A stretch of DNA of 64,000 bases from Pedococcus sp. 5OH_020 (GTDB lineage: Bacteria; Actinomycetota; Actinomycetes; Actinomycetales; Dermatophilaceae): NCBI RefSeq assembly GCF_027812955.1, contig NZ_JAPYZV010000010.1:62001-126000 (forward strand), read 5' to 3'. The notes under the pieces were generated by a model. It was not told where the DNA came from and searched no databases. It worked only from the letters and a program-made list of their open reading frames with translations. Shown piece by piece: positions 37,318 to 55,700 of this stretch. Made by a program: the position numbers and the translations under genes. The stretch's first letter is position 1. Each line of letters opens with the position of its first letter.

Positions 37318-37364
37318 CGTCGTCCGACGGCGGACGCGGGTGACGCCCGGACCGGAGGGCTGCT

Positions 37365-39254
37365 CTGACTACTGGGGGCGAGCCGTACGAGGACGCGGAG
37401 CTCTCGTCCTACCTCCCGTTCAGGACGTGGCTCGCGGCGCAGCCTGGCCGCTCCGTCCACTGTGCTGCGGCATGCCTGCTGCTTTTCCAGGCGCTGGTAC
37501 GTGGGTACGTCAAGCTCGACGGCTGGTTCCTGGCCGACGACATGCTGTTCATCGGGCGTGCCGAGCACCTTCCACTGCTCAGCCGCGAGTACCTCCTCGC
37601 GCCCTGGAACGGCCATCTCATGCCGGGGTCCTTCGCCGTGGTGCGCCTGCTCGACCAGCTATGGCCCGTGAGCTACGTCCCTGTGGCCATCGTGGACCTG
37701 AGCCTTCAGCTGGTCGCGGGAGTGCTGGCCTACCGGTTGCTCGTCGCCCTCTTCGGTGCCCGTGCCGCGATCCTCGTGCCGCTGTCGATGTTCCTCTTCT
37801 CTCCCGTCACCCTGCCCGCGTTCCTGTGGTGGGCCGCCGCACTCAACCAGCTCCCCGGACAGGTCGCCATGATCGGCGTCCTGCTGCTGCAGGTGCGCTA
37901 CCACCGACTGGGAAGGACGCGTGACGGCGTCGCAGGGGCCATGGTTCTGGCAACCGGTCTGCTGTTCTCGGAGAAGCTCCTGCTCGTGCTGCCCGTCGTG
38001 TTCGCCCTCACGCTGTTGTTCCTCTCCTCTGGACGACCGCCGGCCAGGGTGCGGTACGCGGTGAGGAGCAGCTGGCGCGTCTGGCTCGCCCACCTGGCTG
38101 TCGTCGTGCCGTACTGCGTCTACTACCTCTCGCACGTCCCCAGCCCGGTCACCAGGACGCCGAAGGGCGAGGTCGTCCTGCGGACCGCGTGGACAGCGCT
38201 GACCAAGGCCGTCCTGCCGGGGCTGTTGGGCGGACCATGGCGGTGGCAGCAGGTCGGCGTCGGCGCGATAGCCGACCCGGTCGAGGCCGTCGTCGTGGTG
38301 AGCACCGTGGCAGCGGGGCTGCTTGTGGTCGTCTCGGTGCTCCGCCGTCGCCGTGCCGTGTTCGGCTGGGCGGTCGTCGCGGGGTACTGGCTGTCCACGG
38401 CACTTCTGCTGGGCGTCACGCGGGCCCCGTATGTCGGACCGGTCATCGGCGCCGAGTACCGCTACAGCACGGAGGTCTGCATCGTCGTCGCCGTGTTCGG
38501 CACTGCGGCGTTCCTGCCCCTGCACGGCCCCTTCCGGCGTGGTCAGGCGCAGCGACTGGCGCCCCGGCGCCGAGGGCGCCGCCCTATGGCCGCCAGCAGG
38601 CAGCCCCTCGCAGCCGGAGCGCTCTGCGTGGCGGTCGTCGGGGCGTCACTGGTCTCGACGTACCAGTTCGACCGCTTCTGGCGTCAGAACCAGGCCGCGT
38701 CGTACTTCGCGAGGGCACGAAGCGACCTGGCGACGGCCCACCGTCCTCTGACGCTGGTGGAGATGCCGCTCCCGCCGAAGGTCCAGCAGGGCTTTCTCGG
38801 GTCCTTCGTCCACACGTCGACGGTGATGTCGGCGTTCGAGCCGAGACCACGCTTCCTCACCGCCGGCAGGTCGGCCGACGAGCTCTACATGCCCGACGAC
38901 ACGGGCCATCTGCGACGGGTCGCCGTAGAGGGCTTCCCGAACCGGAAGGGGCGCTCGCACGGATGCGGCTGGAGGGTCGAGCGGCAGCCGGTCTCCATCC
39001 CGCTGACCCGGCCGACCCTGCCGTGGCGGTGGACCGCCCGCGTCGGCTACCTGGCGAGCGAGGACGCGACCGCGACCGTGCGTGTCGGATCGGTGACCTC
39101 GATGGTCCGGATCCGCCGGGGCGTCAACACGCTGTTCGTCCTCGGCGAGGGCGTCGTCGACAGCGTCGACCTGACCGGGCTCAGCCGAGGGGCGCTGTGC
39201 ACTGACGACGTCACGGTGGGCTCACCCCGCGCCGTCCCGTACTCCCATCCGTGA
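37365..39254 (+). CDS. Large membrane protein A, GT-C-like, paralogue of protein B; probable CTG start
   Basis: Polytopic membrane protein related to the one at 41178-43127; no named family recognised. The first canonical start (ATG 37542) falls after the first membrane segment. The frame is open upstream to 37344, with no ATG, GTG or TTG. CTG 37365 lies 6 nt after GGAGG and restores the N-terminal segment (CAAACLLLFQALV), giving 629 residues. An acidic pair in the first outer loop (GWFLADDMLF, residues 58-59) recalls GT-C glycosyltransferases. Blocks shared with protein B are WWAAALNQLPGQ, GLLFSEK, HVPSP and GPVIGAEYRY. The soluble C-terminal domain has CGWR, TLPWRWTARVGYL and LCTDDVTVG. It probably acts on a lipid-linked sugar outside the membrane. 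Confidence 0.85.
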   Translation: MTTGGEPYEDAELSSYLPFRTWLAAQPGRSVHCAAACLLLFQALVRGYVKLDGWFLADDMLFIGRAEHLPLLSREYLLAPWNGHLMPGSFAVVRLLDQLWPVSYVPVAIVDLSLQLVAGVLAYRLLVALFGARAAILVPLSMFLFSPVTLPAFLWWAAALNQLPGQVAMIGVLLLQVRYHRLGRTRDGVAGAMVLATGLLFSEKLLLVLPVVFALTLLFLSSGRPPARVRYAVRSSWRVWLAHLAVVVPYCVYYLSHVPSPVTRTPKGEVVLRTAWTALTKAVLPGLLGGPWRWQQVGVGAIADPVEAVVVVSTVAAGLLVVVSVLRRRRAVFGWAVVAGYWLSTALLLGVTRAPYVGPVIGAEYRYSTEVCIVVAVFGTAAFLPLHGPFRRGQAQRLAPRRRGRRPMAASRQPLAAGALCVAVVGASLVSTYQFDRFWRQNQAASYFARARSDLATAHRPLTLVEMPLPPKVQQGFLGSFVHTSTVMSAFEPRPRFLTAGRSADELYMPDDTGHLRRVAVEGFPNRKGRSHGCGWRVERQPVSIPLTRPTLPWRWTARVGYLASEDATATVRVGSVTSMVRIRRGVNTLFVLGEGVVDSVDLTGLSRGALCTDDVTVGSPRAVPYSHP

Positions 39255-39274
39255 CGTGCGGAAGGGGCCTCGGA

Positions 39275-40255
39275 TCACAGCCGGGCGCGTGCCCGACGCT
39301 CGTCCGCGCCGCGGGCCAGGAAGATCCCGAAGCCGGCAAGGATGATCCCCAGGAGCAGAGCCGCCAGGGGCACGATCATGGTGATCCCGGTGATCGACTT
39401 GATGCCGTCGCGCGCGAGTCCGGCCTGCAGCCTGTCCGCCGCCTGGGTGAAGGCCAGCGTGCCCTTGAGCGCAGTCTTGCCGGCCAACGCCGGGTCACGC
39501 ATGTCCGAGCCGGGCTCCGTGGTCGCCAGACCGGTCAGCCGCTGGTCGATCTGCTCCTGGCCGTGGATGATGACGCCGGTCCTCGGCTCCACCCACAGGG
39601 TGCGCACGTTGCTGTAGAGCGAGGGAAAGATGCCCGAGGTCATCGCCGGAGCATCGGTGATCGTCTGGACGAACTTGTAGACCTCCAGGCCCTCCCGCTT
39701 CTCGACGCCCTTGAACTCGATCGGCCAGGCGTGCTTGGACACGGTGTCGAAGTACTGGTAGTCCGTCTTGCCGGTGAACATCGGGAACTTGTAGCCCAGA
39801 CCCCTGTGAGCCACCGGCTCGCCGTCCACGGAGGCCTTGCACTCCTGCGCCCCCGACTCGCCGCACTTCCTGCCCGTCACGGCATACCCGGAGACCCGGT
39901 CGAACGCGATGCGGTCCTGGTAGTTGGCCACGATCCGGTCGTCGTCACGCAGGCACCCCGGGTGCTGGTTGTCGTCGTCCCGTGTCAGGCACAGCGTCTC
40001 GTCGTACACCGCCACGTCATGGTTTCCCGCCGCGACGTCGCCGCGCAGGTGCCGCGTGATGTCGACGGTGATGGGAACGACGCCTCCCGCCTTCGCGTCG
40101 AGGTACTGGAAGCCGGTACCGCCCGCCTTCAGCGTCACGTTGATGTCCAGGGGCGCGCGGACCAGGGCTGGGGCGACCGCGAACCTCACCACGGGCGCCA
40201 TCACCAGGAGGAGGACGCCCAGTCCGAACAGGACCAAGCCCAGCGAGCGCTTCAC
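39275..40255 (-). CDS. DUF3068 / PorA-family membrane protein
   Basis: Membrane-anchored protein of 326 residues with one segment at each end (about 3-27 and 295-315) and a large external domain. The DUF3068 (porin PorA-like) family is typical of Corynebacteriales (Rv0227c). A corynebacterial member has been linked to lipomannan maturation and lipoarabinomannan synthesis (from memory). Visible features are LDINVTLKAGGTGFQYL, the Cys pairs CLTRDDDNQHPGC and CGESGAQEC, and KFPMFTGKTDYQYFDT, a block I recall as conserved. The GTG start has AAAGG 9 nt upstream. It is the only minus-strand gene between the two GT-C-like paralogues. Confidence 0.9.
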   Translation of the reverse strand: MKRSLGLVLFGLGVLLLVMAPVVRFAVAPALVRAPLDINVTLKAGGTGFQYLDAKAGGVVPITVDITRHLRGDVAAGNHDVAVYDETLCLTRDDDNQHPGCLRDDDRIVANYQDRIAFDRVSGYAVTGRKCGESGAQECKASVDGEPVAHRGLGYKFPMFTGKTDYQYFDTVSKHAWPIEFKGVEKREGLEVYKFVQTITDAPAMTSGIFPSLYSNVRTLWVEPRTGVIIHGQEQIDQRLTGLATTEPGSDMRDPALAGKTALKGTLAFTQAADRLQAGLARDGIKSITGITMIVPLAALLLGIILAGFGIFLARGADERRARARL

Positions 40256-40449
40256 GCGTGCAGCCTTTCAGCAGGGTGCCGTCACGCGAGTCGTCGACGG
40301 CGGTGTCCACAGGTGTTCGGCAAAACGTACCAGGGAGTAGCCTTCCTCCGCCGTAACGTTGTCTCGCCGGACCGCGTTGTCGGCGCGTGTCGCCGTCCCG
40401 TGTCGCCAGGGGGCGCTGGCGGCTGGGCGCGGCTGCACAGAGGAGCTCG

Positions 40450-41181
40450 ATGGATCTCGACCGGACGCAGTCCGACTGGACGACCCTCGGCGAGAGGGAC
40501 CCCCTGTGGGCCGTGCTCGTCACGCCCGAGGGGCGGCACGACTCCTGGGACCCGGACGAGTTCCTCGCCACCGGTCGCGCTGAGGTCGCCGACGTGCTGG
40601 AGCAGGTGCGTCGACTGGGTCTCGCTCCTGGGAGCGCGTCGGCCCTCGACTTCGGCTGCGGGGCCGGGCGGCTGACCCAGGCGCTGCGCGACCACTTCGA
40701 CGCGGTGGTCGGCGTCGACTTCTCCGAGCCGATGCTGTCGAGGGCGCGTGACCTGGACCCCGAGCACCGCTGCCAGCTCGTGCACCACGAGGGCCCCGGT
40801 CTCGCCATCTTCCCCAGCGACAGCTTCGACCTTGCCTACTCCTCCCTCGTCCTCCAGCACATCCCCACGCCCCATGCGCGGACGTACCTGTCCGAGCTGG
40901 TCCGCGTCGTCCGGCCGGGCGGGGTCGTCGCCGTGCAGGTCGCGACTCGGCCCGACCTCAGCGTGAAGGGTGTGCTCACGCGAGTGCTGCCCCGGACAGC
41001 GATGCGCTTCCTGCAACGGCGGCTGCTCCGCTACCCCGCCCCCATGGACATGTACCGCCTCTCGCGGGCCGACGTCGACGCCGCGGTCAATCCTGGCGCC
41101 CGCGTGGTCGCCGCCTGGGACGAGCCGATGTACGGCGGTCACTGGGTGTACACGCGCTACCTCGTCGAGGTGGTGCGATGA
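40450..41181 (+). CDS. SAM-dependent methyltransferase of the envelope locus
   Basis: Class I methyltransferase of 243 residues. ATG 40450 follows AGAGGAG by a few bases; the upstream frame is non-coding. SAM-binding motif ALDFGCGAGRLTQALRDHF lies near residue 58, then VVGVDFSEPML, SLVLQHIPTPHA and RVVRPGGVVAVQVA. Its stop overlaps the start of the large membrane protein B (ATGA), so the two are translated together, which suggests that it modifies a substrate of that protein or works in the same glycan pathway. Confidence 0.88.
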   Translation: MDLDRTQSDWTTLGERDPLWAVLVTPEGRHDSWDPDEFLATGRAEVADVLEQVRRLGLAPGSASALDFGCGAGRLTQALRDHFDAVVGVDFSEPMLSRARDLDPEHRCQLVHHEGPGLAIFPSDSFDLAYSSLVLQHIPTPHARTYLSELVRVVRPGGVVAVQVATRPDLSVKGVLTRVLPRTAMRFLQRRLLRYPAPMDMYRLSRADVDAAVNPGARVVAAWDEPMYGGHWVYTRYLVEVVR

Positions 41182-43127
41182 CGGCGGCCGACCCGATCCT
41201 GGACCCGGCAGACGCCGCCGGGCCCACCGAGCAGGTGGACCCACCAGCACCGTCCGCACCACCACGACGTCAGCCCGCCCGCTGGGTCTCACTGAGCGTC
41301 GGCGCCGTGCTCGTGGTCGGGCTGGCGACGCGGGGCTGGGTGGCGTGGCGCGGGTACTACTACCTCGACGACTTCACCTTCATGGCCAAGGCGGCCGGAC
41401 ACTCGGCGCTCGACCCGGACTACCTCCTGGAGCCGTACAACAGCCATCTCATGCCCGGCGCCTACCTGTGGGTCTGGGTGCTGACCTGGACGATGCCCTT
41501 CCACTACGGGGCTGTGGTCGTCGTGACCGTGGCCCTCCAGGCGGTCCTCGGAGGGCTGTTCTACACCCTGCTGCGCCGCCTCTTCGGCGCGTCCCCGCTG
41601 GTGCTCCTACCGTTCGCCGTACTCGTGCTGAGCCCGCTGACGCTGCCCGGCACCACATGGTGGGCGGCCGCCGTGAACCAGGTACCGCAGCAGCTGGCGA
41701 TGGTGGCCGCGCTCCTGGCGCACACCGCCTACCTGCGCACCGGACGAGTGCGACAGGGGCTGCTGGGACCCCTGGCCCTGGTCGGCGGCCTGCTCTTCTC
41801 GGAGAAGACTCTGCTCCTCCTGCCGCTGGTCGCGGGCCTCACGGTGCTCTTCTTCACCACCGGCCCGGCCCGGGGCCGCATCCGGGTAGCGCTCAGCCGG
41901 CACCGCGTCGTGTGGCTCGGCTACGCCGTCGTTGCCCTGCCCTACCTCGGGTACTACGTGACTCATGTCCCCTCGCCCGCCCGGCACCCGGGACAGGGCT
42001 CGGCCCTCGTACAGCTGGGGCTGGAGTCGCTCGTGCGCGGCGTGGTTCCGGCACTGCTCGGCGGCCCCTGGACCTGGGTCCGGATCGGCTACGCGGGGGC
42101 GCTGGCCGACCCGAGCCCCTTCGCGTGCGGGGTGGCCCTCGTGCTGGCGGTCGCGGTGGTGGTGGGGAGTTGCCTGCTCCACCGCGACGCCTGGCGTGGC
42201 TGGGTGCTGGCGACCGGCTACGGGATGCTGAACCTCGTCGTCCTGGCCTTCAGCAGGGCGGCCATCATCGGCCCCGTCATCGGCGACGAGTACCGCTACG
42301 TCACCGACCTCGCCCTCGTCGCGGCCCTCGGACTGGGACTGGCGACCGTCCCTCTCGCCGGACGGTGGCGGCTCGGACCCGCCACCACCCTGGCGCCGCG
42401 GGAGACCGTCCGCAGGTGGTTTGCGTCCTCCCCGGTGCGCGACCAGCTGGCCGAGCTGCCCCGGCCCACGACCGGTGGCGTCGCTGCAGTGGCGACGTCG
42501 GGGCTGGTCCTCAGTGCCACCTGGAGCACGGTGGCCTACGACGAGTTCTGGCACGACAACCCGGCCAGGCCCTGGGTCCGCACCGCCAGTGCCGAGCTCG
42601 CGCGGGCGGACGGCGACGTGGTCCTCGCGGAGGGCTACGTCCCCCAGAAGGTGGCGTGGGCCCTCCTCGGTCCGTACGCCGGCGTCGGCCGGCTGCTCTC
42701 GCCGCTGCCCGAGGCGCCTCGCACTCTGGCGAGCGGCCCAGCCGCCGACGCGTTGTGGATGCTCGACTCGGAGGGGCGCCTGCAGCGGGCAGCCGTCGAG
42801 GGCATCTCGGCTCGCAAGGGCCCGGCGAAGAGCTGCGGCTGGAGGCTCGGGGCCAGGGCGGTCACCATCCCTCTGCAGAAGCGCACCCTTCCGTTCCGCT
42901 GGACCCTGCGCATCGGCTACCTGAGCACGACGTCGACGACCGCCGTCGTGACGGTCGGCGGCCACCGCACCACCGTGCCGTTCCACGCCGGCCTCGGCTC
43001 GGTGTACCTGCTGGTCGACGGCGCTGTCGATCAGGTGACCGTCTCCGCCCTCCAGGACGCGGGCACGCTGTGCACCGACGACGTCACGGTGGGCACCGCC
43101 GTGCCCGCCGCGGGAGGGTCCCGATGA
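41178..43127 (+). CDS. Large membrane protein B, GT-C-like, paralogue of protein A
   Basis: A 649-residue polytopic protein. A Pro/Ala-rich cytosolic leader (1-35) precedes the first segment; the acidic pair at 64-65 (YYYLDDFTFM) lies in the first outer loop, a feature of GT-C glycosyltransferases. About ten segments follow, then a C-terminal domain with CGWRLGARAVTIPL, TLPFRWTLRIGYL and LCTDDVTVG, all echoed in protein A. The two cysteines (CGW ... LCTDD) may form a disulfide outside the cell. It is coupled by 4-nt overlaps to the methyltransferase before it and the acyltransferase after it. It is probably a glycosyltransferase using a polyprenyl-phosphate sugar; donor and acceptor are unknown. 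Confidence 0.88.
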   Translation: MTAADPILDPADAAGPTEQVDPPAPSAPPRRQPARWVSLSVGAVLVVGLATRGWVAWRGYYYLDDFTFMAKAAGHSALDPDYLLEPYNSHLMPGAYLWVWVLTWTMPFHYGAVVVVTVALQAVLGGLFYTLLRRLFGASPLVLLPFAVLVLSPLTLPGTTWWAAAVNQVPQQLAMVAALLAHTAYLRTGRVRQGLLGPLALVGGLLFSEKTLLLLPLVAGLTVLFFTTGPARGRIRVALSRHRVVWLGYAVVALPYLGYYVTHVPSPARHPGQGSALVQLGLESLVRGVVPALLGGPWTWVRIGYAGALADPSPFACGVALVLAVAVVVGSCLLHRDAWRGWVLATGYGMLNLVVLAFSRAAIIGPVIGDEYRYVTDLALVAALGLGLATVPLAGRWRLGPATTLAPRETVRRWFASSPVRDQLAELPRPTTGGVAAVATSGLVLSATWSTVAYDEFWHDNPARPWVRTASAELARADGDVVLAEGYVPQKVAWALLGPYAGVGRLLSPLPEAPRTLASGPAADALWMLDSEGRLQRAAVEGISARKGPAKSCGWRLGARAVTIPLQKRTLPFRWTLRIGYLSTTSTTAVVTVGGHRTTVPFHAGLGSVYLLVDGAVDQVTVSALQDAGTLCTDDVTVGTAVPAAGGSR

Positions 43128-44467
43128 ACCGCGGGCGTCCCGGCCCCGACGCCGGCGCGGACCACGGCGCCTTCCCGGCCCTCGACGGGCTGCGTGCCGT
43201 CGCGGTGGTCGCGGTCGTGCTGACCCACGCCGGCTACTGGACCGGCCGGTACGGCCACGGCTTCGGTGCGGCCTTCCTGGCTCGGATGGACAGCGGCGTC
43301 GCCGTGTTCTTCGTCATCAGCGGCTTCCTGCTCTTCCGCCCCTGGCTGCTCTCCGCGGCCGTCCCGCAGCGGCACACTCCCTCGCTCCAGCGCTACGCCG
43401 TCCGCAGAGCGCTGCGCATCCTGCCCGCGTACTGGCTGGCCGTCGTCCTGTGCCTGGTGCTCGTGCCCCAACAGCAGCACGTCACGGCCCTGGACTGGGT
43501 GCGTCACGCCCTGCTCCTGCAGATCTACCGCTTCGGGTGGTTCCGCGAGGGACTGACCCAGACCTGGAGCCTGGCGACCGAGGCCTCGTTCTACGCGGCC
43601 CTGCCCTTGTTCGGGCTGGCCGTGGCGTGGTGGTTGCGGCGGGCCTGGTCCGCGCCGACCGCCCTGGCGGCGTGCGCGGCGCTCGGCGCGGTACCGGTCG
43701 GCTGGCAGATCTGGCTCCACGCAGGAGCGCACCAGGTCATGGGAGGGTTCTGGCTCCCGGCATACCTCGGGTGGTTCGCCGCCGGTATGGCCCTGGCCGT
43801 GGTCCGCGTGCACCTCGACGCCCACGCCCCGGACCAGGAGTCACGCTGGTGGCGGGCCGAGGCGCTGGGTCGGTACCCGTTCACGTGCTGGGCCGTGACG
43901 GCGGCGGCCCTGCTCGCCGCGATGACGCCGGTGGCGGGACCCCGCTCCCTCACCGCGGACACCGCCGGCCAAGCGGTCACCAAGGCGCTGCTGTACGGCG
44001 TCGTCGGGACGTCGCTGGTGTGGCCGGCGGTGTTCGGCCGGTCACCCCTCACGATGGTGGTGCTGGCGAACCGCCCCCTACGATACCTGGGCGACATCTC
44101 GTACGGCATGTTCCTGTACCACCTGCTGGTACTGACGTGGGTGATGCGCGTACTGGGATATCCGGTGTTCTCCGGGCAGGTCGTCCAGGTGTTCCCGCTG
44201 ACAGTCGTCGGCTCCGCCGCGCTGGCGGCCGTGAGCTTCCGGTTCCTCGAGCGACCGTTCATCCGCCTCGGCCACCGCCGAGGCGAGTCCCAGGGGGAGA
44301 GTCGGCGAGGTGGTCAGCCGCTCTGCGCGCTTCCGCCCGTCTCCGGCGAGGCCGCGCTCGACGCACCGGCACCCGTCGGAGCACAGGTACCCCTCGCAGC
44401 GCTCGAAGCACCGGTACCCACGGGTACCGCGAACCCGAGGCCCAACGCCAGGAGGCACAGCGTCTGA
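43124..44467 (+). CDS. Acyltransferase-3 (OafA/TmaT-like) membrane protein
   Basis: Integral membrane O-acyltransferase of 447 residues with about ten segments. The family opening FPALDGLRAVAVVAVVLTHAGY includes the key His35; SGFLLFRPWLL and LGDISYGMFLYHLLVL follow. In Corynebacteriales a homologue in the equivalent locus (Rv0228) acetylates trehalose mycolates; here a glycan or lipid acceptor is more likely. The family normally ends near RFLERPFIRL; an extra tail of about 60 Ala/Pro/Arg-rich residues runs 154 bp into the convergent aftD gene. The ATG overlaps the protein B stop (ATGA). Confidence 0.9.
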   Translation: MNRGRPGPDAGADHGAFPALDGLRAVAVVAVVLTHAGYWTGRYGHGFGAAFLARMDSGVAVFFVISGFLLFRPWLLSAAVPQRHTPSLQRYAVRRALRILPAYWLAVVLCLVLVPQQQHVTALDWVRHALLLQIYRFGWFREGLTQTWSLATEASFYAALPLFGLAVAWWLRRAWSAPTALAACAALGAVPVGWQIWLHAGAHQVMGGFWLPAYLGWFAAGMALAVVRVHLDAHAPDQESRWWRAEALGRYPFTCWAVTAAALLAAMTPVAGPRSLTADTAGQAVTKALLYGVVGTSLVWPAVFGRSPLTMVVLANRPLRYLGDISYGMFLYHLLVLTWVMRVLGYPVFSGQVVQVFPLTVVGSAALAAVSFRFLERPFIRLGHRRGESQGESRRGGQPLCALPPVSGEAALDAPAPVGAQVPLAALEAPVPTGTANPRPNARRHSV

Positions 44468-47400
44468 GCGGGTGCCGAGCCGGCCGCATAGCTCGTGGAT
44501 CCCCACGGGTCGACGGCGAGCCTGACCACGGCCGCCAGGTAGCACCCGGCGGCGAGCCACGGCAGGGACGCTGCGGCCCTCGCGTGCCGGGAAGCGACGG
44601 ACCACGCCAGCGCCGCCGCTGCACCGACCGCGAGTCCGACCCAGCCGCCGGCGGCAGCGAGCACGACCAGCCCCACCACGGCCGGTGACGGCCCCGTACC
44701 GACGCGGGGCGTGACCGCTCGAGGTGAGCCGCCGCGTCGACCCGGAACGACCGCGCCGAGCAGCAGCGCGAACGCGGCGAGGAGGCCGAGCGCCAGCCCC
44801 GAGCGCATCAGCCGGTCGGGTGCGAAGTCCAGGTGGACCACCGCGGTGGAGGTGCCGCCGGGCACGACATACCCCTGCTGCCAGCCGTCGACCGTGACTC
44901 GGCGCAGCTCACGGCCCGCCACCGTGGCGTGCCAGCCCTCGTTCGCGTTCTCGTGCACCGTGAGCACAGTCTCCTCGCGGCGCGGTCCCACCGTGACGGC
45001 CCGGTGGGTGGGGTCCCAGCGACCCGTCCGCACCTCTGGTGTGGGCGGATCGGCCGTCGGCGCACTCTCGGGAGACTCGGTGGCGGCCAGCACCACTCCG
45101 TCCGGGGTCCACGTCTGCGTGCCGGGGAGCCGCACCCGGTGGGTGCCCTGCTGCACGGTCAGCGACGCCAGACCGCACGGCTGCGCAACCATCGGCTGCA
45201 GTCGGCGCAGGGCGTCCACAGTGGTGTCCACGCGCGTGGCGAAGGCCTGGTCGTCGAGGAACAGGCCAGGGCCCTGCCCGCAGCCGAGATGCACGGGACG
45301 GGAACGGACGGCGTCGAGCGCTGCCGCGGTGGCTGTGTGCGTCACCCGGGGGATCTCCACCTCGCTGACCCCCACGCCGAGATGCACCAGCCGCCGCTGC
45401 GCGGGGTCGTAGCTGGAGGCCAGGGTCGGAGCCCGAACCAGCATGGTGAGGCGGTCCGTGGCGAGCGTGTCGAAGAGCACCTCCCCGTCGGCGCCCACCG
45501 CAACCACCCGGTTGCCGGCCGGACTGGTGATGGTGACCTCGGTGGGCGCCGTGGCGGCGACTGCGGGATCGAGGACGAGCCGCAGGTGGGAGATCCTCCG
45601 GGCGCCGTGCCAGCGGAGCTCCAGCGATGGGCGGGCGTCGGCCGGGTCGGCGACCCAGGCGGTCCCGAGGTCACCGTCGACGGCGGACGCGGCGGAACCC
45701 CCGGGATCCGGGACGGCCGCCGAGGACCCCGTAGCGCTGACCGGCCCACCGGCTGCCCTCCGCAGGAGCCGGTCGAGGGGAGCGCCAGGCGTGGGCACCA
45801 CGGTCGCCTGCACGGCATACCGCTGCGACGTCGGTGAGGTGAACGTCCGGTCGAGGCCGGCGGCATCCTCGCCGGCGGTGGAGCGGCCGGTGGCGCACAG
45901 CGTCCGGGCCGATGTGGACACACACGAGTCCCGACGCCCGGACGTCGTGAGCACCACCGCGCGGAGCGCGACCGGTGTGGTCGACGGGGCCAGCACCACA
46001 GTCCGGCTCACTGTCACGCCCGGGACGGCGAGCTCGCTCACGCCCAGCGGCGCGTCGAGGTCCGCGCCTGCGACCCGGTCCCCCAGCTGGAGCCGTAGGC
46101 CGGCCGCACGAGCGACGGGGACGCGCAGGTCCACGGACGTGGCGCCGTCGAGACGCGTCGTCGCGGACCGGCCGGCCACCTTCACGGTGACGCTGCGCAG
46201 CTGCGACCCCGGCACAACCGTCAGGTGGGTCCTCGAGAGGTCCACGACCCGACCGAAGTCCACCGAGAGCCACTGCTGTGCGACGGGAAGCCCCGGGTTG
46301 GGACGCCAGGCGGTCCGGGGGCTGCCGTCGATGGCCGAGTAGGGCATCGCGGACTGGTCGACCGACGGTACGGCGTCGGCATCGGCTGCCGAGGAGGAGG
46401 CCTCGACCGCGCGGACACCATCGAGGCGCGCCTCGGCAGGCGCCACCTCACCGGCGTCGTAGTCGCGGCTCGGCTTGTCGATCCGGAGTGGGTCCGTCGC
46501 AGAGAGGGTCGCCGACTCGTTGGCCGCGCCCCCGGCGAAGCTGGTCTCGCGACGCCGCGGTGTGTCGGTCAGCACGGTGCCCGAGGAGGTCAGCAGCGCC
46601 GCTCCGCTGCCCAGCTGTCCGGCGTCCTGGAGCGCCACGAGCGACTCGCTACCACCCTGCACCTGCTGGACCTGCGACCGCGGCGTGACGGTCACGCGGC
46701 TGTCGCCGCCACCCCGGATCTCGAAGACCTCGAGGGCGGGGTACGGCACGTTGAGGAACTGGTCGTAGGCGAGCGTCACACTGCCGCGCGAGCCGACGGT
46801 GGGACCGAAGGTCGCGACCCGGACGACGTCCGCCGAGGCCTCGAGGGCCTGGTGCACCAGCACGGGGCTCGTCGCTCCGACCGCCCCGTAGTCCAGGTCG
46901 TTGCGGACCAGCACGTACCGCACGCCGCCTCGCTTGAGGGCCGTCACAAGCCCGGGGCCGCCTCGACCGGCCGAGAAGGCATGTTCCACGGAGTCCAGCC
47001 AGCGGATGTGGCCCGTCGTGGTGAGAGGGATGGTGTTGCGGACGTCCCACGGCTGCCTGGCGAGCGGCTGCAGCGGCTCGTCGTTGGTGTTCCCCCAGTC
47101 GTAGACGCCGAAGCGCGAACCAGGGGCCAGGAGCGTGCGGCCCGTGGCGTCGGCGTGGTCCAGCCAGCGTGCCGCGTCGCTCCAGTACCCCGGCACCGCA
47201 CTGAACCCCTGGGCCGGTGCCGCCTTCATGGACAGCAGCGGTACCGCGGCGCCGAGGACTGCGAAGAGCGCGGCGACGAAGACGAGCGCGCGCGTGGCGC
47301 GGGTCTCGGCCACGCTGCGGCCTCGGCCCAAGGCGTCCACCAAGGCGGCGAGCCCGAGCACCAGTGGCAGCCGAACGGCGACGTCGAACTTATGGACGTT

Positions 47401-48540
47401 GCGCAGCGGCGCCAGCGCACCGTCCAGGGCGGCGCGCAGCGTCTGGGAGCCGAACCCGTCCACACTCCCCACGTGACCGAGAGTCACCAGGACGACTCCG
47501 GCGGCCAGGCTCGCGAGCAGCCAGCGGCGGTGCGGCATCGCCGGGAGGAAGAGTCCTGCGACCCCGGCCGCGGCCACGGCTCCGGTGAGCAGCACGAGCA
47601 CCGGGGACGTGAGCAGCATCGCCCCTGCGGTCGACCCGGACGCCGAGAGGTACCCGATCCAGTCGTGCGTCCCGCGAAGCACCTCGACCAGGTTGGTGGT
47701 GCTCGTCGTCACCGACGCACTCTCGATGTAGCCCAGGAACGGCGGGCTGAAGCGGCCGAGCAACAGCAGGGGCACCAGCCACCACGAGCAGGCCAGCAGG
47801 ACAGCCAGCGCCCACCACCCCGCCAGCGCCGCGAGCGCCCGGTCGAGGCGCCTCGTGGCGAACCACGCCATGGCAGGCACCACAGCGGCCAGGACCAGGG
47901 TGGCGTTGACGCCGCCCATGCACAGCACGGGCACGCCGGACAGGAATGCGGTCCGGCGCGCGGAGCGCGTCGCAGCGGCATCCGAGACGAGCGGGACGAG
48001 GACCCAAGGGGCCAGCGCCATCGGCCACGCCTCTGCGGACACCGGGCCGAGGACGGTGAGGAGGTGCGGCGACACGGCGAACGCCGCGCCTGCCAGGAGC
48101 TGTCCGGCGGGGGACCCGACCCGCAGCCGCCGTGCGAGGGCCACGACTCCGGTGAACCCCACGCAGAGCACCACCGACCACCACAGCCGCTGAACCACCC
48201 AGGCCGGCGCTCCGGCCAGGTGGCCCAGCGCGAAGAAGGGCCCCATCGGGAACAGGTACCCGTACGCCTGGTTCTGGAGCTGGCCGGACGCACCCAGTGG
48301 GTCCCAGAGGTGCAGCGCACGCTGGAGGAACCCGACGGGGTCGACCACGAGGTCCAGCTTGGTGTCGGCCACCGTCGCTCCGCTCGAGGACCCCAGGGCG
48401 AAGGCGGTCAGCAGGGCACAGACCACCACCTGCCGCACGGTCCAGATGAACGACGCCGAGCCGCCCGGTGCCGGCCCGTCGGGACGTGAGAGCTGCCGCG
48501 GAGGAGACGCGGCCCGAGCGGGCTCGGTCATCGCGGCCAC
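44314..48540 (-). CDS. aftD: Alpha-(1->3)-arabinofuranosyltransferase AftD-type (DUF3367)
   Basis: Very large membrane glycosyltransferase. In mycobacteria AftD branches the arabinan of arabinogalactan and lipoarabinomannan using decaprenyl-phospho-arabinose. The 1408 residues match mycobacterial AftD length. The N-terminal GT-C part has about eleven segments with acidic first-loop residues (DTKLDLVVDP near 59). A long external beta-rich middle with carbohydrate-binding-module-like domains (RTAWRPNP ... QQWLSVDFGRVVDLSRTHL) follows, then C-terminal membrane segments. The start may be GTG 48540 or ATG 48531. The 3' end overlaps the convergent acyltransferase by 154 bp. ubiA-dprE1-dprE2, which make the donor, are 4 kb away. 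Confidence 0.92.
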   Translation of the reverse strand: MAAMTEPARAASPPRQLSRPDGPAPGGSASFIWTVRQVVVCALLTAFALGSSSGATVADTKLDLVVDPVGFLQRALHLWDPLGASGQLQNQAYGYLFPMGPFFALGHLAGAPAWVVQRLWWSVVLCVGFTGVVALARRLRVGSPAGQLLAGAAFAVSPHLLTVLGPVSAEAWPMALAPWVLVPLVSDAAATRSARRTAFLSGVPVLCMGGVNATLVLAAVVPAMAWFATRRLDRALAALAGWWALAVLLACSWWLVPLLLLGRFSPPFLGYIESASVTTSTTNLVEVLRGTHDWIGYLSASGSTAGAMLLTSPVLVLLTGAVAAAGVAGLFLPAMPHRRWLLASLAAGVVLVTLGHVGSVDGFGSQTLRAALDGALAPLRNVHKFDVAVRLPLVLGLAALVDALGRGRSVAETRATRALVFVAALFAVLGAAVPLLSMKAAPAQGFSAVPGYWSDAARWLDHADATGRTLLAPGSRFGVYDWGNTNDEPLQPLARQPWDVRNTIPLTTTGHIRWLDSVEHAFSAGRGGPGLVTALKRGGVRYVLVRNDLDYGAVGATSPVLVHQALEASADVVRVATFGPTVGSRGSVTLAYDQFLNVPYPALEVFEIRGGGDSRVTVTPRSQVQQVQGGSESLVALQDAGQLGSGAALLTSSGTVLTDTPRRRETSFAGGAANESATLSATDPLRIDKPSRDYDAGEVAPAEARLDGVRAVEASSSAADADAVPSVDQSAMPYSAIDGSPRTAWRPNPGLPVAQQWLSVDFGRVVDLSRTHLTVVPGSQLRSVTVKVAGRSATTRLDGATSVDLRVPVARAAGLRLQLGDRVAGADLDAPLGVSELAVPGVTVSRTVVLAPSTTPVALRAVVLTTSGRRDSCVSTSARTLCATGRSTAGEDAAGLDRTFTSPTSQRYAVQATVVPTPGAPLDRLLRRAAGGPVSATGSSAAVPDPGGSAASAVDGDLGTAWVADPADARPSLELRWHGARRISHLRLVLDPAVAATAPTEVTITSPAGNRVVAVGADGEVLFDTLATDRLTMLVRAPTLASSYDPAQRRLVHLGVGVSEVEIPRVTHTATAAALDAVRSRPVHLGCGQGPGLFLDDQAFATRVDTTVDALRRLQPMVAQPCGLASLTVQQGTHRVRLPGTQTWTPDGVVLAATESPESAPTADPPTPEVRTGRWDPTHRAVTVGPRREETVLTVHENANEGWHATVAGRELRRVTVDGWQQGYVVPGGTSTAVVHLDFAPDRLMRSGLALGLLAAFALLLGAVVPGRRGGSPRAVTPRVGTGPSPAVVGLVVLAAAGGWVGLAVGAAAALAWSVASRHARAAASLPWLAAGCYLAAVVRLAVDPWGSTSYAAGSAPAQTLCLLALGLGFAVPVGTGASSAARGTCAPTGAGASSAASPETGGSAQSG

Positions 48541-48541
48541 G

Positions 48542-49303
48542 TCAGTGCACCCGCAGGACGATCACGAGGTTCCAGACCGCCACCTCGCGAAGGATAGGTA
48601 CCTTCGCGACCCAGTGGGCCCACCGCGGGTGGTATCTGGGGAAGACGGCGACGACCTCGGCGTCACTGGTCGTGCGTGCCCAGCGAACCAGCCGGCCCGC
48701 GTGGGTGGCGAAGAGGGACCGGCCGAAGTCGTTCTTGGGACGGCGCCCGCGGGACCGCGCGAACCGGTCCGCCGCGTACCGGCCGCCCAGGTAGTGCCAC
48801 GGCGCGGTCTCGTGGCCACCCCACGGCGAGAACCAGGTGGTCCAGGACAGGAACACGATTCCGCCGGGCCGCGTGACGCGGACCATCTCCGCCGCCATCG
48901 CGTAGGGGTCGCGCACGTGCTCCAGGACGTTGCTGGAGTAGCTGAGGTCCACCGCGTCGGTGGCCAGGGGCAGCAGCATCCCGCTCCCCTGCACCGTGTT
49001 GGCCCCCGGCTCGCCCACAGCCCCGAGCTCGCCGGCGTCCGCATCGAGCGCCGCATAGCGAGCCCCCGCGCTCTCGAAGGCCCGGGCGAAGTAGCCGGGT
49101 CCCCCTCCGACGTCCACGACGGTCGCGCCGTCCAGGTCCAGGAAGCGACCGACCTCCCGCACGGAGTCCCGCGCCAGTAGGCCGTAGAAGACCTCTGGAC
49201 GGCTCTGCTCGAGCCGGAAGGCACGGAAGAGCTGCACCGACCGCCGCAGCGAGCCCGGGGGCGCGAGGGGGGTGCTCGCAGTCTGCGAGGCTGCTGCTGT
49301 CAC
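48542..49303 (-). CDS. SAM-dependent methyltransferase (Rv0224c/MtrP-like position)
   Basis: Class I methyltransferase of 253 residues. The SAM motif TVVDVGGGPGYFARAFE lies near residue 61, followed by LSYSSNVLEHVRDPYAM and RVTRPGGIVFLSWTTWFSPWGGHE. The aromatic WTTWFSPWGGHETAPWHYLGG block matches what I remember of the mycobacterial Rv0224c group, whose corynebacterial member affects mycolate transport. It is upstream of and adjacent to aftD (1 nt), and divergent from the GT4 gene, exactly as Rv0224c is divergent from Rv0225. Confidence 0.88.
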   Translation of the reverse strand: MTAAASQTASTPLAPPGSLRRSVQLFRAFRLEQSRPEVFYGLLARDSVREVGRFLDLDGATVVDVGGGPGYFARAFESAGARYAALDADAGELGAVGEPGANTVQGSGMLLPLATDAVDLSYSSNVLEHVRDPYAMAAEMVRVTRPGGIVFLSWTTWFSPWGGHETAPWHYLGGRYAADRFARSRGRRPKNDFGRSLFATHAGRLVRWARTTSDAEVVAVFPRYHPRWAHWVAKVPILREVAVWNLVIVLRVH

Positions 49304-49343
49304 TGCGGGCGTCTCCGATGACTTCTGGCGTGCTACCGGCAGG

Positions 49344-49349
49344 TAGGAT
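49344..49349 (+). promoter_or_regulatory. Candidate -10 box of the GT4 gene
   Basis: TAGGAT 38 nt before the preferred GTG start, with TGACTT 19 nt upstream as a possible -35. It lies within the longer reading of the gene, which argues for the shorter protein. Confidence 0.4.
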
Positions 49350-49386
49350 AACGCGACCTCCGACGACGAAGGACCGCGCGACTACG

Positions 49387-50577
49387 GTGAGCCCCCGCAC
49401 TACCTCGGCACGCCACGTGCTGATCCTGAACTGGCGAGACACGGGCCACCCCGACGGTGGTGGCTCCGAGGTCTACGCCGAGCGCATCGCCGACGGCCTG
49501 GCCCACCGGGGCCACCGGGTGACGCTGCTCACCGCACGCTATGCCGGGTCTGCGGCGGCGGAGACGCGGCCCAGCGGCGTGGAGGTCCGGCGTGCCGGTG
49601 GACGGCTCGGCGTGTACCCCCGGGCGGCGCTCACGGTGCTGCTGCGCAAGGTGGCCCGGCCGGACCTCATCATCGAGACCCAGAACGGCTTCCCGTTCCT
49701 GGCCGCCCTGTGGGCACCTCGGGTCCCGCATGTGGTGCTCGTCCACCACGTCCATCGGGAGCAGTGGCCGGTCGTGTTCCCCGCACCGGTGGCCCGCCTC
49801 GGCTGGTGGCTCGAGTCCCGGCTGGCACCGTGGCTCAACCGGAGTCGTCCCTACGTCACCGTCTCGGACGTGAGCCGTGACGAGCTGGTCGAGCTCGGCA
49901 TCGCCGCCGATCGGATCCGGGTCGTGCACAACGGCGTCATCCCGCCACCGCCGCACGACGTGCCACGCACCCCGCACCCCCAGCTGCTCGTCCTCGGGCG
50001 GCTCGTCCCGCACAAGCGGGTCGAGCTGGCGCTGGAGGTCGCGGAGCGGCTTCGGCCCGAGTTCCCGGACCTTCGGCTCGTCGTCGCCGGGCGTGGGTGG
50101 TGGGAGGACGAGCTGCGCGGTGAGATCGCGTCACGCGGGATCGGCCACTTCGTGCAGATGGCAGGGTTCGTCAGTGCTCAGGAGCGCCATCGCCTGTATG
50201 CCGGGAGCTGGGTCTCGCTGGTGCCGTCCCTGAAGGAGGGATGGGGCCTCGTCGTCGTGGAGGCCGGGCTGCACGAGACACCGAGCGTGGCCTTCCAAGG
50301 CGCGGGCGGGGTTGCCGAGTCGATCATGGACGGCCTCACGGGCGTGCTGGCTCGCCAGGACGACGTCGAGCACTTCACCGAGCTCACCCGCGGGCTCCTC
50401 CGAGACGTCAGGGCTCGCGAGGAGATGGGGGCGGCCGCCATGGCGTTCGCCGGCCGGTTCACCTGGGCAGAGGCCATTGCGCGCTTCGACGAGCTGGTCG
50501 CCGAGCTCACGGACGACGGCTCGTGCCTCAGGCCGACCAGCGGCTCAGGTCGACTGCCTCAGCGGCTGGTGCCGTAG
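49387..50577 (+). CDS. GT4-family glycosyltransferase (Rv0225-like)
   Basis: Cytosolic retaining glycosyltransferase of GT-B fold. GTG 49387 is preferred, giving 396 residues that begin close to the first beta strand (HVLILNWRDTGHPDGGGSEVY); ATG 49318 would leave only 14 nt to the divergent gene and include a -10-like box. The donor-site motif PSLKEGWGLVVVEAG contains the paired glutamates typical of GT4. LVLGRLVPHKRVELALE marks the start of the second domain. It probably adds a nucleotide-sugar to a lipid-linked intermediate on the inner face, for the large membrane enzymes encoded beside it to use or flip. Confidence 0.9.
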   Translation: MSPRTTSARHVLILNWRDTGHPDGGGSEVYAERIADGLAHRGHRVTLLTARYAGSAAAETRPSGVEVRRAGGRLGVYPRAALTVLLRKVARPDLIIETQNGFPFLAALWAPRVPHVVLVHHVHREQWPVVFPAPVARLGWWLESRLAPWLNRSRPYVTVSDVSRDELVELGIAADRIRVVHNGVIPPPPHDVPRTPHPQLLVLGRLVPHKRVELALEVAERLRPEFPDLRLVVAGRGWWEDELRGEIASRGIGHFVQMAGFVSAQERHRLYAGSWVSLVPSLKEGWGLVVVEAGLHETPSVAFQGAGGVAESIMDGLTGVLARQDDVEHFTELTRGLLRDVRAREEMGAAAMAFAGRFTWAEAIARFDELVAELTDDGSCLRPTSGSGRLPQRLVP

Positions 50578-50690
50578 TCGTACAGCGGTGCCTGGCTCTG
50601 CTTCACCGGCGGCTGGGCGGCCTGGTACACGCCATAGCTGGACAGCAGTCCAAGGACAGCGGCCACCACAGCCGTGACAGCGATGCGCAT
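50559..50690 (-). CDS. DUF2613-like small membrane protein (43 aa)
   Basis: A short gene with sequence MRIAVTAVVAAVLGLLSSYG followed by VYQAAQPPVKQSQAPLYDYG and TSR. There is one membrane segment at about 3-20, then a short external tail ending DYGTSR, as in the DUF2613 family of actinobacterial small membrane proteins. GGAGGT lies 10 nt before the ATG. The 3' end overlaps the convergent GT4 gene by 19 nt. The function is unknown; it lies downstream of the large membrane protein at 50750-52663 on the same strand, 59 nt away, and may be co-transcribed. Confidence 0.75.
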   Translation of the reverse strand: MRIAVTAVVAAVLGLLSSYGVYQAAQPPVKQSQAPLYDYGTSR

Positions 50691-50749
50691 GCCGCTCGAT
50701 ACCTCCAGGACTGCCGGGAGCGGCACAGTGCAGCACTGCCCGCCAGACG

Positions 50750-52663: not shown

Positions 52664-52670
52664 CGGTCGG

Positions 52671-52676: not shown

Positions 52677-52686
52677 TGCCACCCGC

Positions 52687-52692: not shown

Positions 52693-52699
52693 GACGGGC

Positions 52700-53557
52700 G
52701 TGATCCGCGGGGGCGTACGACTCATGCGCCCGCGCCAGTGGATCAAGAACGTCCTCGTGGGCGCGGCTCCTCTCGCCGCCGGCACCATCCTCCACGGCAC
52801 CACCGCGGTCCGCACGCTCCTCGCGCTCGTCGCGTTCTGCCTGGCCAGCAGCGCGACATACTGCGTCAACGACGTCATGGACCGGGAGGCCGACGCCCAG
52901 CACCCGACCAAGCGCGGCCGGCCCGTCGCCTCGGGCGCAGTACCGCCCTGGGCGGCCCTCGCCCTCGCGGCCGTCCTTGCGGTCGCCGCCGTGGCGGTCA
53001 CCGGCCCACCGGCGTTCCGTCTGGTCGTACTGGGCTATCTCGTCCTGACCGTCTCGTACAGCGTGTGGCTGAAGCACCGCCCGGTCCTGGAGCTCGGGCT
53101 CGTCTCCGGAGGGTTCCTGCTGCGGGCCGTCGGGGGCGGCCTGGCCACCGGGCTGCCGCTGTCACAGTGGTTCCTCATCGTCACGGCGTTCGGGTCGCTC
53201 TTCATGGTCGCGGGGAAGCGGCTCTCCGAGCTCATCGCGGCACAGCACGCCAGCGCCGTCGTCCGCCGCAGCCTGACGTACTACCCGCTGTCCTACCTGC
53301 GCATGGTTCTCGGCATCAGTGCCGGGGTCACCATCACGGGCTACTGCCTCTGGGCCTTCGAGGTGGGCGCCGGGCATCGGGGCGGCACCTGGTCCGCGAT
53401 CAGCGTCGCACCGTTCGTGCTGGCCGTGATGCGCTACGGCCTCGACAGCGACCTCGGCCGGGTGGAGGAGCCGGAGCAGGTCGTGCGCCGCGACGGCACC
53501 CTGCAGGTGTTGGGGCTCGCCTGGCTCGCGACGTTCTCACTCGGCGTGCTGCTGTGA
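52700..53557 (+). CDS. ubiA: Decaprenyl-phosphate phosphoribosyltransferase (UbiA family)
   Basis: Transfers 5-phosphoribose from PRPP to decaprenyl phosphate, the entry step to decaprenyl-phospho-arabinose. GTG 52700 is favoured because TAGGGT stands 7 nt upstream; ATG 52676 and GTG 52691 are alternatives. The 285 residues have about nine membrane segments, the UbiA metal-site motif NDVMDREADAQHPTKRGRP near residue 57, a second acidic motif (YGLDSDLGRVEEPE) near 251, and the family opening RPRQWIKN. The stop overlaps the dprE1 start (GTGA), so the pathway enzymes are made together. Confidence 0.93.
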   Translation: MIRGGVRLMRPRQWIKNVLVGAAPLAAGTILHGTTAVRTLLALVAFCLASSATYCVNDVMDREADAQHPTKRGRPVASGAVPPWAALALAAVLAVAAVAVTGPPAFRLVVLGYLVLTVSYSVWLKHRPVLELGLVSGGFLLRAVGGGLATGLPLSQWFLIVTAFGSLFMVAGKRLSELIAAQHASAVVRRSLTYYPLSYLRMVLGISAGVTITGYCLWAFEVGAGHRGGTWSAISVAPFVLAVMRYGLDSDLGRVEEPEQVVRRDGTLQVLGLAWLATFSLGVLL

Positions 53558-54942: not shown

Positions 54943-55700
54943 ACGCTCTTCGCTCACCTCAGTCCGTTCTCGTGCTCGGTGCATCCTCGGACATCGCTCA
55001 GGCCACGGTGGCCGCACTGGCCCGACGTGGCCGTCTGGACCGGGTCGTCCTCGCCGGACGTCCCGGCCCCAGGCGCGACGCGGCCGTGCAGAAGGCCACC
55101 TCGGAAGTGGGGCGACGCGGGGTGGTGCGCGCCCTGGACTTCGACGCCACCCGACCCGACGAGCACGAGGCGGTGGTGGCGGAGGCTTTCGCCGACGGCG
55201 ACGTCGACGTGGTGCTGCTGGCCTTCGGGGTCCTGCCGGATGCGGCAACGGCGGCAGCGCCGGATGCGGCCGCGGCGGTCGTCACGACGAACTTCACGGG
55301 TGCGGTGTCCGCGCTGACTGCCTCGGCGGCCCGGTTGCGCGCACAGGGCCACGGAACCATGGTCGTGCTCTCCTCGGTCGCCGGCGAACGGCCCCGGCGG
55401 TCCAACTACCTGTACGGGGCCACCAAGGCTGGGCTCGACGCGTTCGCGACCGGCCTCGGCGACGACCTCGCGGGGACCGGCGTGGAGGTCGTCGTCGTAC
55501 GGCCCGGTTTCGTCCGGACGTCGATGACCGCCGGACTGGGCCCCGCGCCGCTGTCGGTGGATGCCAGTGACGTGGCTGAGGCCGTTGTCGCCGCGGTCGG
55601 CGGCGGCACCCGGACGGTCTGGGTGCCGGGCGCGCTGCGCCTGGTCATGTCGGTCCTGCGGCACCTGCCGCGCGCCGTCTTTCGCCGGCTGCCGATCTGA
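54936..55700 (+). CDS. dprE2: Decaprenylphosphoryl-2-keto-D-erythropentose reductase DprE2
   Basis: Short-chain dehydrogenase that completes epimerisation of decaprenylphosphoryl-ribose to decaprenylphosphoryl-arabinose. GTG 54936 overlaps the dprE1 stop by 7 nt and gives 254 residues. The nucleotide-binding motif is LVLGASSDIAQATV near 13-26, with catalytic Ser146/147, Tyr160 and Lys164 in LSSVAG ... YLYGATKAG. PGFVRTSMTAG follows. As last gene of ubiA-dprE1-dprE2 it closes the supply line for AftD and any other arabinofuranosyltransferase. Confidence 0.94.
   Translation: MLDALRSPQSVLVLGASSDIAQATVAALARRGRLDRVVLAGRPGPRRDAAVQKATSEVGRRGVVRALDFDATRPDEHEAVVAEAFADGDVDVVLLAFGVLPDAATAAAPDAAAAVVTTNFTGAVSALTASAARLRAQGHGTMVVLSSVAGERPRRSNYLYGATKAGLDAFATGLGDDLAGTGVEVVVVRPGFVRTSMTAGLGPAPLSVDASDVAEAVVAAVGGGTRTVWVPGALRLVMSVLRHLPRAVFRRLPI

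What the first reader, a model, noticed from the sequence alone, without database searches (positions are those of the whole stretch)
37365..43127. Two paralogous GT-C-like membrane proteins of an unrecognised family with a shared C-terminal domain
Proteins A (37365-39254) and B (41178-43127) share a first-loop acidic pair (ADDM / LDDF), WWAAA.NQ.P.Q, GLLFSEK, HVPSP, GPVIG.EYRY and an external C-terminal domain marked by CGWR, TLP.RWT.R.GYL and LCTDDVTVG. I cannot place them in a named family. They flank a DUF3068 gene and a methyltransferase inside a locus that makes decaprenyl-phospho-arabinose, so they may be new glycosyltransferases of a lipoglycan pathway.
Basis: partly seen in the sequence, partly recalled or inferred. 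Interest (0 to 1): 0.72.

Follow-up and report, generated by a model that had tools for sequence, protein, structure and literature searches.

The report
Unnamed GT-C sugar transferases beside AftD
Two sister membrane proteins in this actinobacterium belong to a protein family that the databases searched here leave unnamed; it is distantly related to enzymes that attach lipid-carried sugars outside the cell, so they are probably new cell-envelope sugar transferases whose exact sugar is still unknown.

Summary
A and B are real paralogs (41% identity over 614 aligned positions) with all the listed motifs. They lie in a locus with PgfA (DUF3068), AftD, MmpA, an acyltransferase, methyltransferases and the decaprenyl-phospho-arabinose genes. 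No Pfam or NCBIfam model and no solved structure identifies them.

The family profile aligns with PMT_2 (ArnT-like) GT-C enzymes at 95.8% probability, with the acidic pair on their Asp-Glu; reversed controls reach 20.8% at most. AftB, AftD, MmpA and Emb give no significant match.

The prediction 'only with dprE1' fails: 5 of 25 family-positive genomes lack DprE1, and outside the mycobacterial family no association remains. The link to AftD is strong (24 of 25). A and B are a lineage-specific duplication. Mycobacteria carry one copy, probably Rv3635 (name recalled).

Best reading: a new family of polyprenyl-phosphate-sugar GT-C transferases acting outside the membrane. Arabinofuranose is plausible here (no Emb, AftA or AftB found) but unproven.

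The parts
37354..37359 (+). GGAGGG, Shine-Dalgarno-like run 5 nt before the CTG at 37365
   Evidence: sequence
37365..39254 (+). Protein A, GT-C-like family member, 629 aa, apparent CTG start
37536..37541 (+). Acidic pair D58-D59 of A (ADDM), equivalent to D64-D65 of B
   Evidence: offset of 6 in the A/B alignment; invariant in 29 of 29
38673..39251 (+). C-terminal external domain of A, disulfide candidate
39275..40255 (-). DUF3068/PorA, PgfA-type protein
   Evidence: PF11271 E 1.6e-65; NF053601 PgfA 203 bits, cut-off 160
40387..41181 (+). Methyltransferase (Methyltransf_11); its stop overlaps the start of B by 4 bp
   Evidence: ATGA seen
41178..43127 (+). Protein B, GT-C-like family member, 649 aa
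41367..41372 (+). Acidic pair D64-D65 of B in the first external loop
   Evidence: invariant in 29 of 29; aligned to the D-E of PMT_2 enzymes
42294..42299 (+). R373-Y374 of B (EYRY)
   Evidence: R in 27 of 29, Y in 25 of 29
42543..43124 (+). C-terminal external domain of B with C553 and C632
43124..44467 (+). Acyltransferase 3 family membrane protein, 4-bp overlap with B
   Evidence: PF01757 E 3.9e-29; ATGA
44314..48540 (-). AftD homolog
   Evidence: PF11847 E 8.5e-233, CBM_AftD E 5.8e-11
48542..49303 (-). Methyltransferase, in the position of MtrP of the mycobacterial/corynebacterial locus (name inferred)
   Evidence: Methyltransf_11; locus compared with PMC8698533 passages
49318..50577 (+). 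GT4-type glycosyltransferase
   Evidence: PF00534, PF13439
50750..52618 (-). MmpA-family membrane protein
   Evidence: NF053599 340 bits, cut-off 210
52724..53557 (+). Decaprenyl-phosphate phosphoribosyltransferase (UbiA type)
   Evidence: NF008978 336 bits, cut-off 207
53554..54942 (+). DprE1-type oxidase
   Evidence: NF053785 463 bits, below cut-off 500
54972..55700 (+). DprE2-type reductase
   Evidence: NF053786 304 bits, cut-off 250

Best explanation
A and B are two members of a so far unnamed family of GT-C glycosyltransferases. Each has a GT-C-type membrane domain of about 10-11 helices with its catalytic acidic pair (D64-D65 in B) just after helix 1 on the outer face, and a disulfide-closed external C-terminal domain that probably recognises the glycan acceptor. 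They take a sugar from a polyprenyl-phosphate donor and add it, outside the membrane, to an envelope glycan or glycolipid handled by the AftD/PgfA/MmpA locus. D64 would be the catalytic Asp and R373 a phosphate or sugar contact. In this organism the likeliest donor is decaprenyl-phospho-arabinofuranose, because its genes lie in the same locus and no Emb, AftA or AftB was found in the genome; in relatives without those genes the family must use another lipid-linked sugar. Shown: paralogy, invariant residues, remote profile homology to PMT_2 GT-C enzymes, locus conservation. Inferred: fold, catalysis, donor, acceptor.
For: Profile-profile: family against the 28-row PMT_2 profile 95.8%, E 7.7e-9, starting at helix 1, D64-D65 on the D-E of HRDE/LDE; reversed controls 20.8% and 12.8%. 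Against narrower PMT_2 profiles: 43.6% (12 rows), 72.8% (5 rows) and 34.6% (24 rows). UbiA, acyltransferase and DUF3068 profiles: 0.2% each. Against 126 single polytopic proteins the nine best-scoring non-family loci are all PMT_2 (43.5 down to 30.1). Acidic pair 29 of 29, R373 27 of 29. In 9 of 19 fetched neighbourhoods the family gene lies with AftD and DUF3068; 2 more are cut by contig ends, 8 lack both. AftD in 24 of 25 family-positive genomes of 396. DPA genes in the window; no Emb, AftA or AftB match in the genome.
Against: No fold was predicted. No significant profile match to AftB, AftD, MmpA or Emb; a single AftA sequence scored 28.9, about the reversed maximum of 28.5. The PMT_2 signal is uneven: against single sequences only 5 of 18 ArnT-like and 3 of 12 type-I proteins exceed the reversed maximum, and the 95.8% came from the broadest profile, in which 10 of 28 rows are 262-302-residue stretches of type-I proteins. 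Some divergent members lack conserved residues: R373 is His in L050 and L012; E209 is missing in 4 of 29 (L048, L050, L012, L052). Five family-positive genomes have no DprE1 and five of ten tested have no clear DPPR synthase, so arabinose cannot be the general donor. I saw no activity data for any member.
Confidence: 0.72

Rival explanations
1. A and B are arabinofuranosyltransferases that use decaprenyl-phospho-arabinose, doing with AftD the work that Emb, AftA and AftB do in mycobacteria. This is the specific form of the best explanation.
For: DPPR synthase, DprE1 and DprE2 in the same locus; DPPR synthase and DprE1 also in the locus of the sister gene in an Aeromicrobium MAG (L003); no match to Emb, AftA or AftB in this genome; AftD present.
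Against: Relatives have the family gene at the same locus with neither DPPR synthase nor DprE1 found (G016, G441, G600); of G204 and G234 only the DPPR synthase was tested, with marginal hits (2.5e-4, 8.3e-4). 64 of 371 family-negative genomes have DprE1.
Confidence: 0.4
2. They are mannosyl-, glucosyl- or aminosugar transferases using another polyprenyl-phosphate sugar, for instance polyprenyl-phospho-mannose or polyprenyl-phospho-N-acetylgalactosamine; the nearby DPA genes serve AftD.
For: Family conserved where DPA genes were not found; in one Mycobacterium-like genome the single copy lies about 7 kb from PpgS (NF058614, 405 bits, cut-off 370); nearest GT-C relatives found are PMT_2 enzymes.
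Against: The one sister gene on the tree, in the Aeromicrobium MAG, also lies with DPPR synthase and DprE1, which fits a donor switch to arabinose.
Confidence: 0.35
3. They are GT-C-like proteins without catalysis: lipid-handling or scaffold partners of AftD, as has been suggested for MmpA.
For: MmpA of the same locus is AftD-like (hhalign 96.6%); the MmpA paper describes it as lacking recognisable catalytic domains, required for acetylated TMCM formation and transport, and possibly a membrane anchor for a complex (PMC8698533, passages).
Against: The acidic pair is kept in 29 of 29 members down to 23% identity with B, and R360 in 29 of 29, more than a scaffold would be expected to need.
Confidence: 0.15
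4. They are members of GT136 (Citrobacter ORF12 pentofuranosyltransferase) that the searches here could not show.
For: Same build as described in PMC11127046 (section 9; CBM range in passages): about 650 residues, GT-C membrane domain, external C-terminal domain after the last helix, candidate catalytic Asp after helix 1, an Arg-Tyr pair 318 residues on (309 here), ArnT as nearest example by sequence.
Against: Two other residues that ORF12 needs, E34 and H106, have no counterpart at equal spacing in A/B (and the alignment). No GT136 sequence was at hand.
Confidence: 0.1

Closest known systems
PMT_2 / ArnT-like GT-C enzymes (PF13231)
   Same: Profile match from helix 1 over the first membrane helices, acidic pair on the Asp-Glu
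   Different: None of the 11 members scanned hits a GT-C Pfam model; extra external C-terminal domain with a cysteine pair
GT136, Citrobacter youngae O1 ORF12 (PMC11127046: abstract, passages, section 9 and part 1 of section 12 read)
   Same: Length, GT-C membrane domain, external C-terminal domain, catalytic Asp after helix 1, Arg-Tyr pair, pentofuranose three-component setting
   Different: E34 and H106 not matched; sequence relation not tested; donor of A/B unknown
AftB (PDB 9dlf, found; PMC12041299: passages seen, abstract among them)
   Same: DD motif after helix 1; an essential Arg about 310 residues on (D62, R372 in AftB; D64, R373 in B)
   Different: No profile match (0.5%; 2.7%); no AftB match in this genome
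AftD and MmpA
   Same: Same locus; AftD in 24 of 25 family-positive genomes
   Different: No significant profile match (6.5% and 6.4%); AftD has CBMs of a named Pfam family
Single-copy mycobacterial protein beside an epimerase gene (Rv3635 by recalled synteny)
   Same: Clear family member; full-length copies of the largest mycobacterial genus code match the profile at E 4.8e-102 to 4.1e-117
   Different: One copy per genome, no AftD in the fetched neighbourhoods; its own clade (100/99)

Membership tests
GT-C superfamily | Acidic residue(s) in the first external loop directly after helix 1 | tested here: met
   DD 13 residues after the predicted helix 1, 29 of 29
GT-C superfamily | Sequence homology to an accepted GT-C family | tested here: met
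   PMT_2 profile 95.8%, reversed controls 20.8% and 12.8%; weaker with narrower profiles, 72.8, 43.6 and 34.6%
GT-C superfamily | 7 to 13 membrane helices | tested here: met
   10 hydrophobic segments by alignment-averaged hydropathy, a rough method (two of them overlap)
GT-C superfamily | GT-CA fold | not testable with these tools
   Structure prediction busy, then switched off
GT-C superfamily | Transfer from a polyprenyl-phosphate sugar | not testable with these tools
   Needs an assay
AftB family | Sequence match to AftB | tested here: not met
   hhalign 0.5%, 2.7% with 10 sequences
AftD family (GT-C_AftD, PF11847) | Match to PF11847 | tested here: not met
   0 Pfam hits for A and B; hhalign 6.5%
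MmpA family (NF053599) | Match to NF053599 | tested here: not met
   0 NCBIfam hits for A and B; the MmpA of this locus is 50750-52618
Emb and AftA families | Match to PF04602, PF12250 or PF12249 | tested here: not met
   0 Pfam hits for A and B; hhalign with Emb 0.2%
GT136 | Sequence match to ORF12 | not testable with these tools
GT136 | Residues that ORF12 needs: D31, E34, H106, R349 (Y350 trace activity) | tested here: inconclusive
   D and Arg-Tyr have candidates at like spacing; E34 and H106 do not (paper section 9)

The most novel reading that the evidence does not exclude
A and B found a new arabinofuranosyltransferase family. In an actinobacterium without Emb, AftA and AftB, they and AftD build an arabinan on a lipoglycan from decaprenyl-phospho-arabinose; the single mycobacterial member near an epimerase gene and ppgS is a further, uncharacterised GT-C enzyme of the mycobacterial envelope.
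Probability: 0.33. Interest if true: 0.76.

Novelty: new member of a known kind. Interest (0 to 1): 0.55.

Why it matters
It adds an unclassified family to the GT-C glycosyltransferases and places it in the AftD/PgfA/MmpA envelope locus of bacteria outside the mycobacterial family. The same family has one member in each family-positive mycobacterial-family genome of the draw, and no paper found here treats it. The locus also shows PgfA, MmpA and AftD together in a genome with no match to Emb, AftA or AftB, so the original job of these genes may be older than arabinogalactan (inference). If A and B use decaprenyl-phospho-arabinose, an arabinan made without Emb becomes directly testable.

Tried and rejected
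Sequence and profile searches of the PDB: P0001 one hit at E 0.77 and P0002 none, A2 none, A3 three hits at E 0.11 or weaker. The C-terminal profile A7 gave only two designed immunoglobulin-like proteins at E about 0.002 over 34-36 residues, too weak to claim a beta-sandwich; Chou-Fasman averages were undecided. PHROGs: best E 0.028 on 17 residues. Direct relation to AftB, AftD, MmpA or Emb: rejected on profile scores, with the caution that accepted GT-C families also fail to find each other this way (PMT_2 against AftB 1.0% and Emb 0.3%). Restriction to dprE1 genomes: rejected. Two first-look matches, L013 and L014, were dropped because their open frames do not look like the family and no frame called in them reached E 1e-3 with the A1 profile. 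L052 is a divergent member with poor ends and was kept in A3, left out of A7; the truncated third copy of L005 was also left out of A7. Paper searches for Rv3635: 0 papers and 0 occurrences in the 5 papers; most subscription papers and all preprints are outside the library. The name Rv3635 and its gene order, and the names galE, topA, PE_PGRS and pks13 used for neighbours, are recalled or read by eye, not from a call. That family code f21 is the mycobacterial family is my inference from such neighbours and from the AftB match to PDB 9dlf.
Full report
Observation. A search of the window's own genome found just these two copies at E <= 0.001. B overlaps the preceding methyltransferase and the following acyltransferase by ATGA. 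A has no ATG, GTG or TTG before its first helix; a CTG at 37365 follows GGAGGG by 5 nt.

Locus. The order is rpsA (reverse), methyltransferase, A, DUF3068/PgfA (reverse), methyltransferase, B, acyltransferase 3, AftD (reverse), methyltransferase (reverse), GT4, MmpA (reverse), DPPR synthase, DprE1, DprE2 (rpsA named by eye). It resembles the mycobacterial/corynebacterial locus with TmaT, NCgl2760/PgfA, MmpA and MtrP (PMC8698533, outline and passages; PMC9678360, passages). DprE1 scores below its NCBIfam cut-off (463 of 500 bits) but at E 1.2e-138. Emb (PF04602), AftA (PF12250) and AftB (profile A4) have no match in the genome.

Family. A scan of genome contigs gave 6 relatives, from Aeromicrobium, Nocardioides and Marmoricola records. 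Draws from the order (248 genomes) and the phylum (396 genomes) gave 7 and 24 positive genomes; two of the 7 are false (L013, L014). With the 29-row profile 25 of 396 are positive, the weakest, G553, by a partial match at E 1.3e-12. The 29-row alignment keeps D64, D65, P93, R360 and G605 invariant, and H90, W161, F207, GGP, R373 and C553 nearly so. No Pfam or NCBIfam model is shared by members. In plasmid records P0001 has two relatives, one annotated 'hypothetical protein', one without a listed feature.

Tree. A and B are sisters (93/92) and join the single Aeromicrobium copy (98/97, starred). The Nocardioides/Marmoricola copies, two or three per locus in L004-L007, form their own clade (100/100), so duplication happened at least twice. 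Eight rows of the mycobacterial family form a third clade (100/99). Congeners of the source organism (G016, G104, G234) carry far more distant members; G016 and G234 carry them at this locus, for G104 the locus was not fetched. Some of these are long branches whose place is unsure.

Neighbourhoods. Of 19 loci examined, 9 have AftD and DUF3068 beside the family gene (L003, L004, L006, L007, L048, L049, L050, L051, L053). L005 (DUF3068 and acyltransferase) and L008 (acyltransferase) lack AftD on contigs that end near the gene. The other 8, L041-L047 from the mycobacterial family and L052, have neither. In L043, a Mycobacterium judged by eye from a PE_PGRS-type neighbour, the gene lies beside what looks like a sugar epimerase and about 7 kb from PpgS. 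From recalled gene order this is Rv3635.

Is it GT-C? Profile-profile comparison with AftB, AftD and MmpA gave 0.5, 6.5 and 6.4%; AftD against MmpA gave 96.6%, so the method works for near kin. PMT_2 enzymes were collected from 59 genomes. The family gave 43.6% with a first 12-row set, 72.8% with a 5-row ArnT-like set and 34.6% with a 24-row type-I set, and 95.8%, E 7.7e-9, with a 28-row profile made after 20 more stretches were fetched. Ten of those 28 rows are 262-302-residue stretches of type-I proteins. The match starts at helix 1 and puts D64-D65 on the Asp-Glu of HRDE/LDE. Reversed controls for the four profiles gave 2.1, 1.1, 1.3 and 20.8% with the PMT_2 side reversed, and 0.7, 1.5 and 12.8% with the family side reversed for the last three. 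UbiA, acyltransferase and DUF3068 profiles gave 0.2% each.

Single proteins. Against 126 single polytopic proteins (108 called from the loci plus 18 ArnT-like ones; 4 of the 108 turned out to be family members) the nine best-scoring non-family loci are PMT_2 (L078 43.5, L098 40.2, L099 40.0, L117 38.3, L103 35.9, L101 31.9, L121 31.0, L086 30.2, L119 30.1). Then come AftB (29.2) and AftA (28.9), about level with the best reversed sequence (28.5). Only 5 of 18 ArnT-like and 3 of 12 clustered type-I proteins exceed 28.5; acyltransferases reach 20.5 and UbiA 16.3. I take remote homology to GT-C enzymes as likely, not proven.

C-terminal domain. After the last predicted helix about 190 residues remain. 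25 of 29 members have exactly C553 and C632 there, including A and B; two (L046, L047) have C553 and C582 instead, so 27 of 29 have exactly two; the third L005 copy, cut by its contig end, shows C553 alone; L052 has three at other positions. A disulfide in an external domain fits. A CBM role is inferred from AftD, Emb and ORF12.

Donor. Across 396 genomes the family goes with AftD in 24 of 25 (51 of 371 without the family) and with DprE1 in 20 of 25 (64 of 371). Without 20 listed members of the mycobacterial family the figures are 5 of 6 against 50 of 370 for AftD, and 1 of 6 against 63 of 370 for DprE1. Relatedness inflates these tests. Of ten genomes searched with the DPPR synthase, G016, G441 and G600 had none and G204 and G234 only marginal matches, although all five carry the family gene with AftD and DUF3068. 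The donor is therefore not arabinose in general. In this genome arabinose is the sugar whose genes are at hand.

Mechanism, by analogy. AftB uses D62 of a DD motif after helix 1, and R221 and R372 are needed (PMC12041299, passages). ORF12/GT136 needs D31 and R349, has ArnT as nearest example by sequence and a C-terminal CBM (PMC11127046, passages, section 9 and part 1 of section 12). D64 and R373 here are similarly spaced (309 residues, against 310 and 318). This spacing is suggestive only.

Novelty. A family of a known superfamily, unnamed in the libraries searched. The paper searches listed no paper that I recognised as treating it; the library lacks most subscription journals and all preprints.

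Noticed in passing
37354-37400: Protein A seems to start at a CTG with a good Shine-Dalgarno run; no ATG, GTG or TTG is available in frame before the first helix. A rare start or an assembly error.
   Followed up: partly
50750-55700: DPPR synthase was not found in congener G016 and only marginally in G234, and DprE1 not in G016, while flanking rpsA (91-94%) and the 36123 methyltransferase (84%) are close there; the DPA genes look gained here or lost in the congeners. The window DprE1 is nearer to those of distant actinobacteria (up to 52%) than to the Aeromicrobium one (42%).
   Followed up: partly
39275-52618: PgfA-, MmpA-, TmaT-position and MtrP-position genes, known from mycolic acid bacteria, stand together in a genome with no match to Emb, AftA and AftB; what trehalose-lipid genes do there is unclear.
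   Followed up: no
44314-44467: The ends of the acyltransferase (+) and AftD (-) overlap by 154 bp in opposite directions.
   Followed up: no
L005 and L007: Three family copies around the acyltransferase in a Marmoricola and a Nocardioides locus.
   Followed up: partly
L066 (G386:C1:1780983-1781807): One Mycobacterium-like genome has a second DPPR-synthase-like gene (45% identity to the window's).
   Followed up: no
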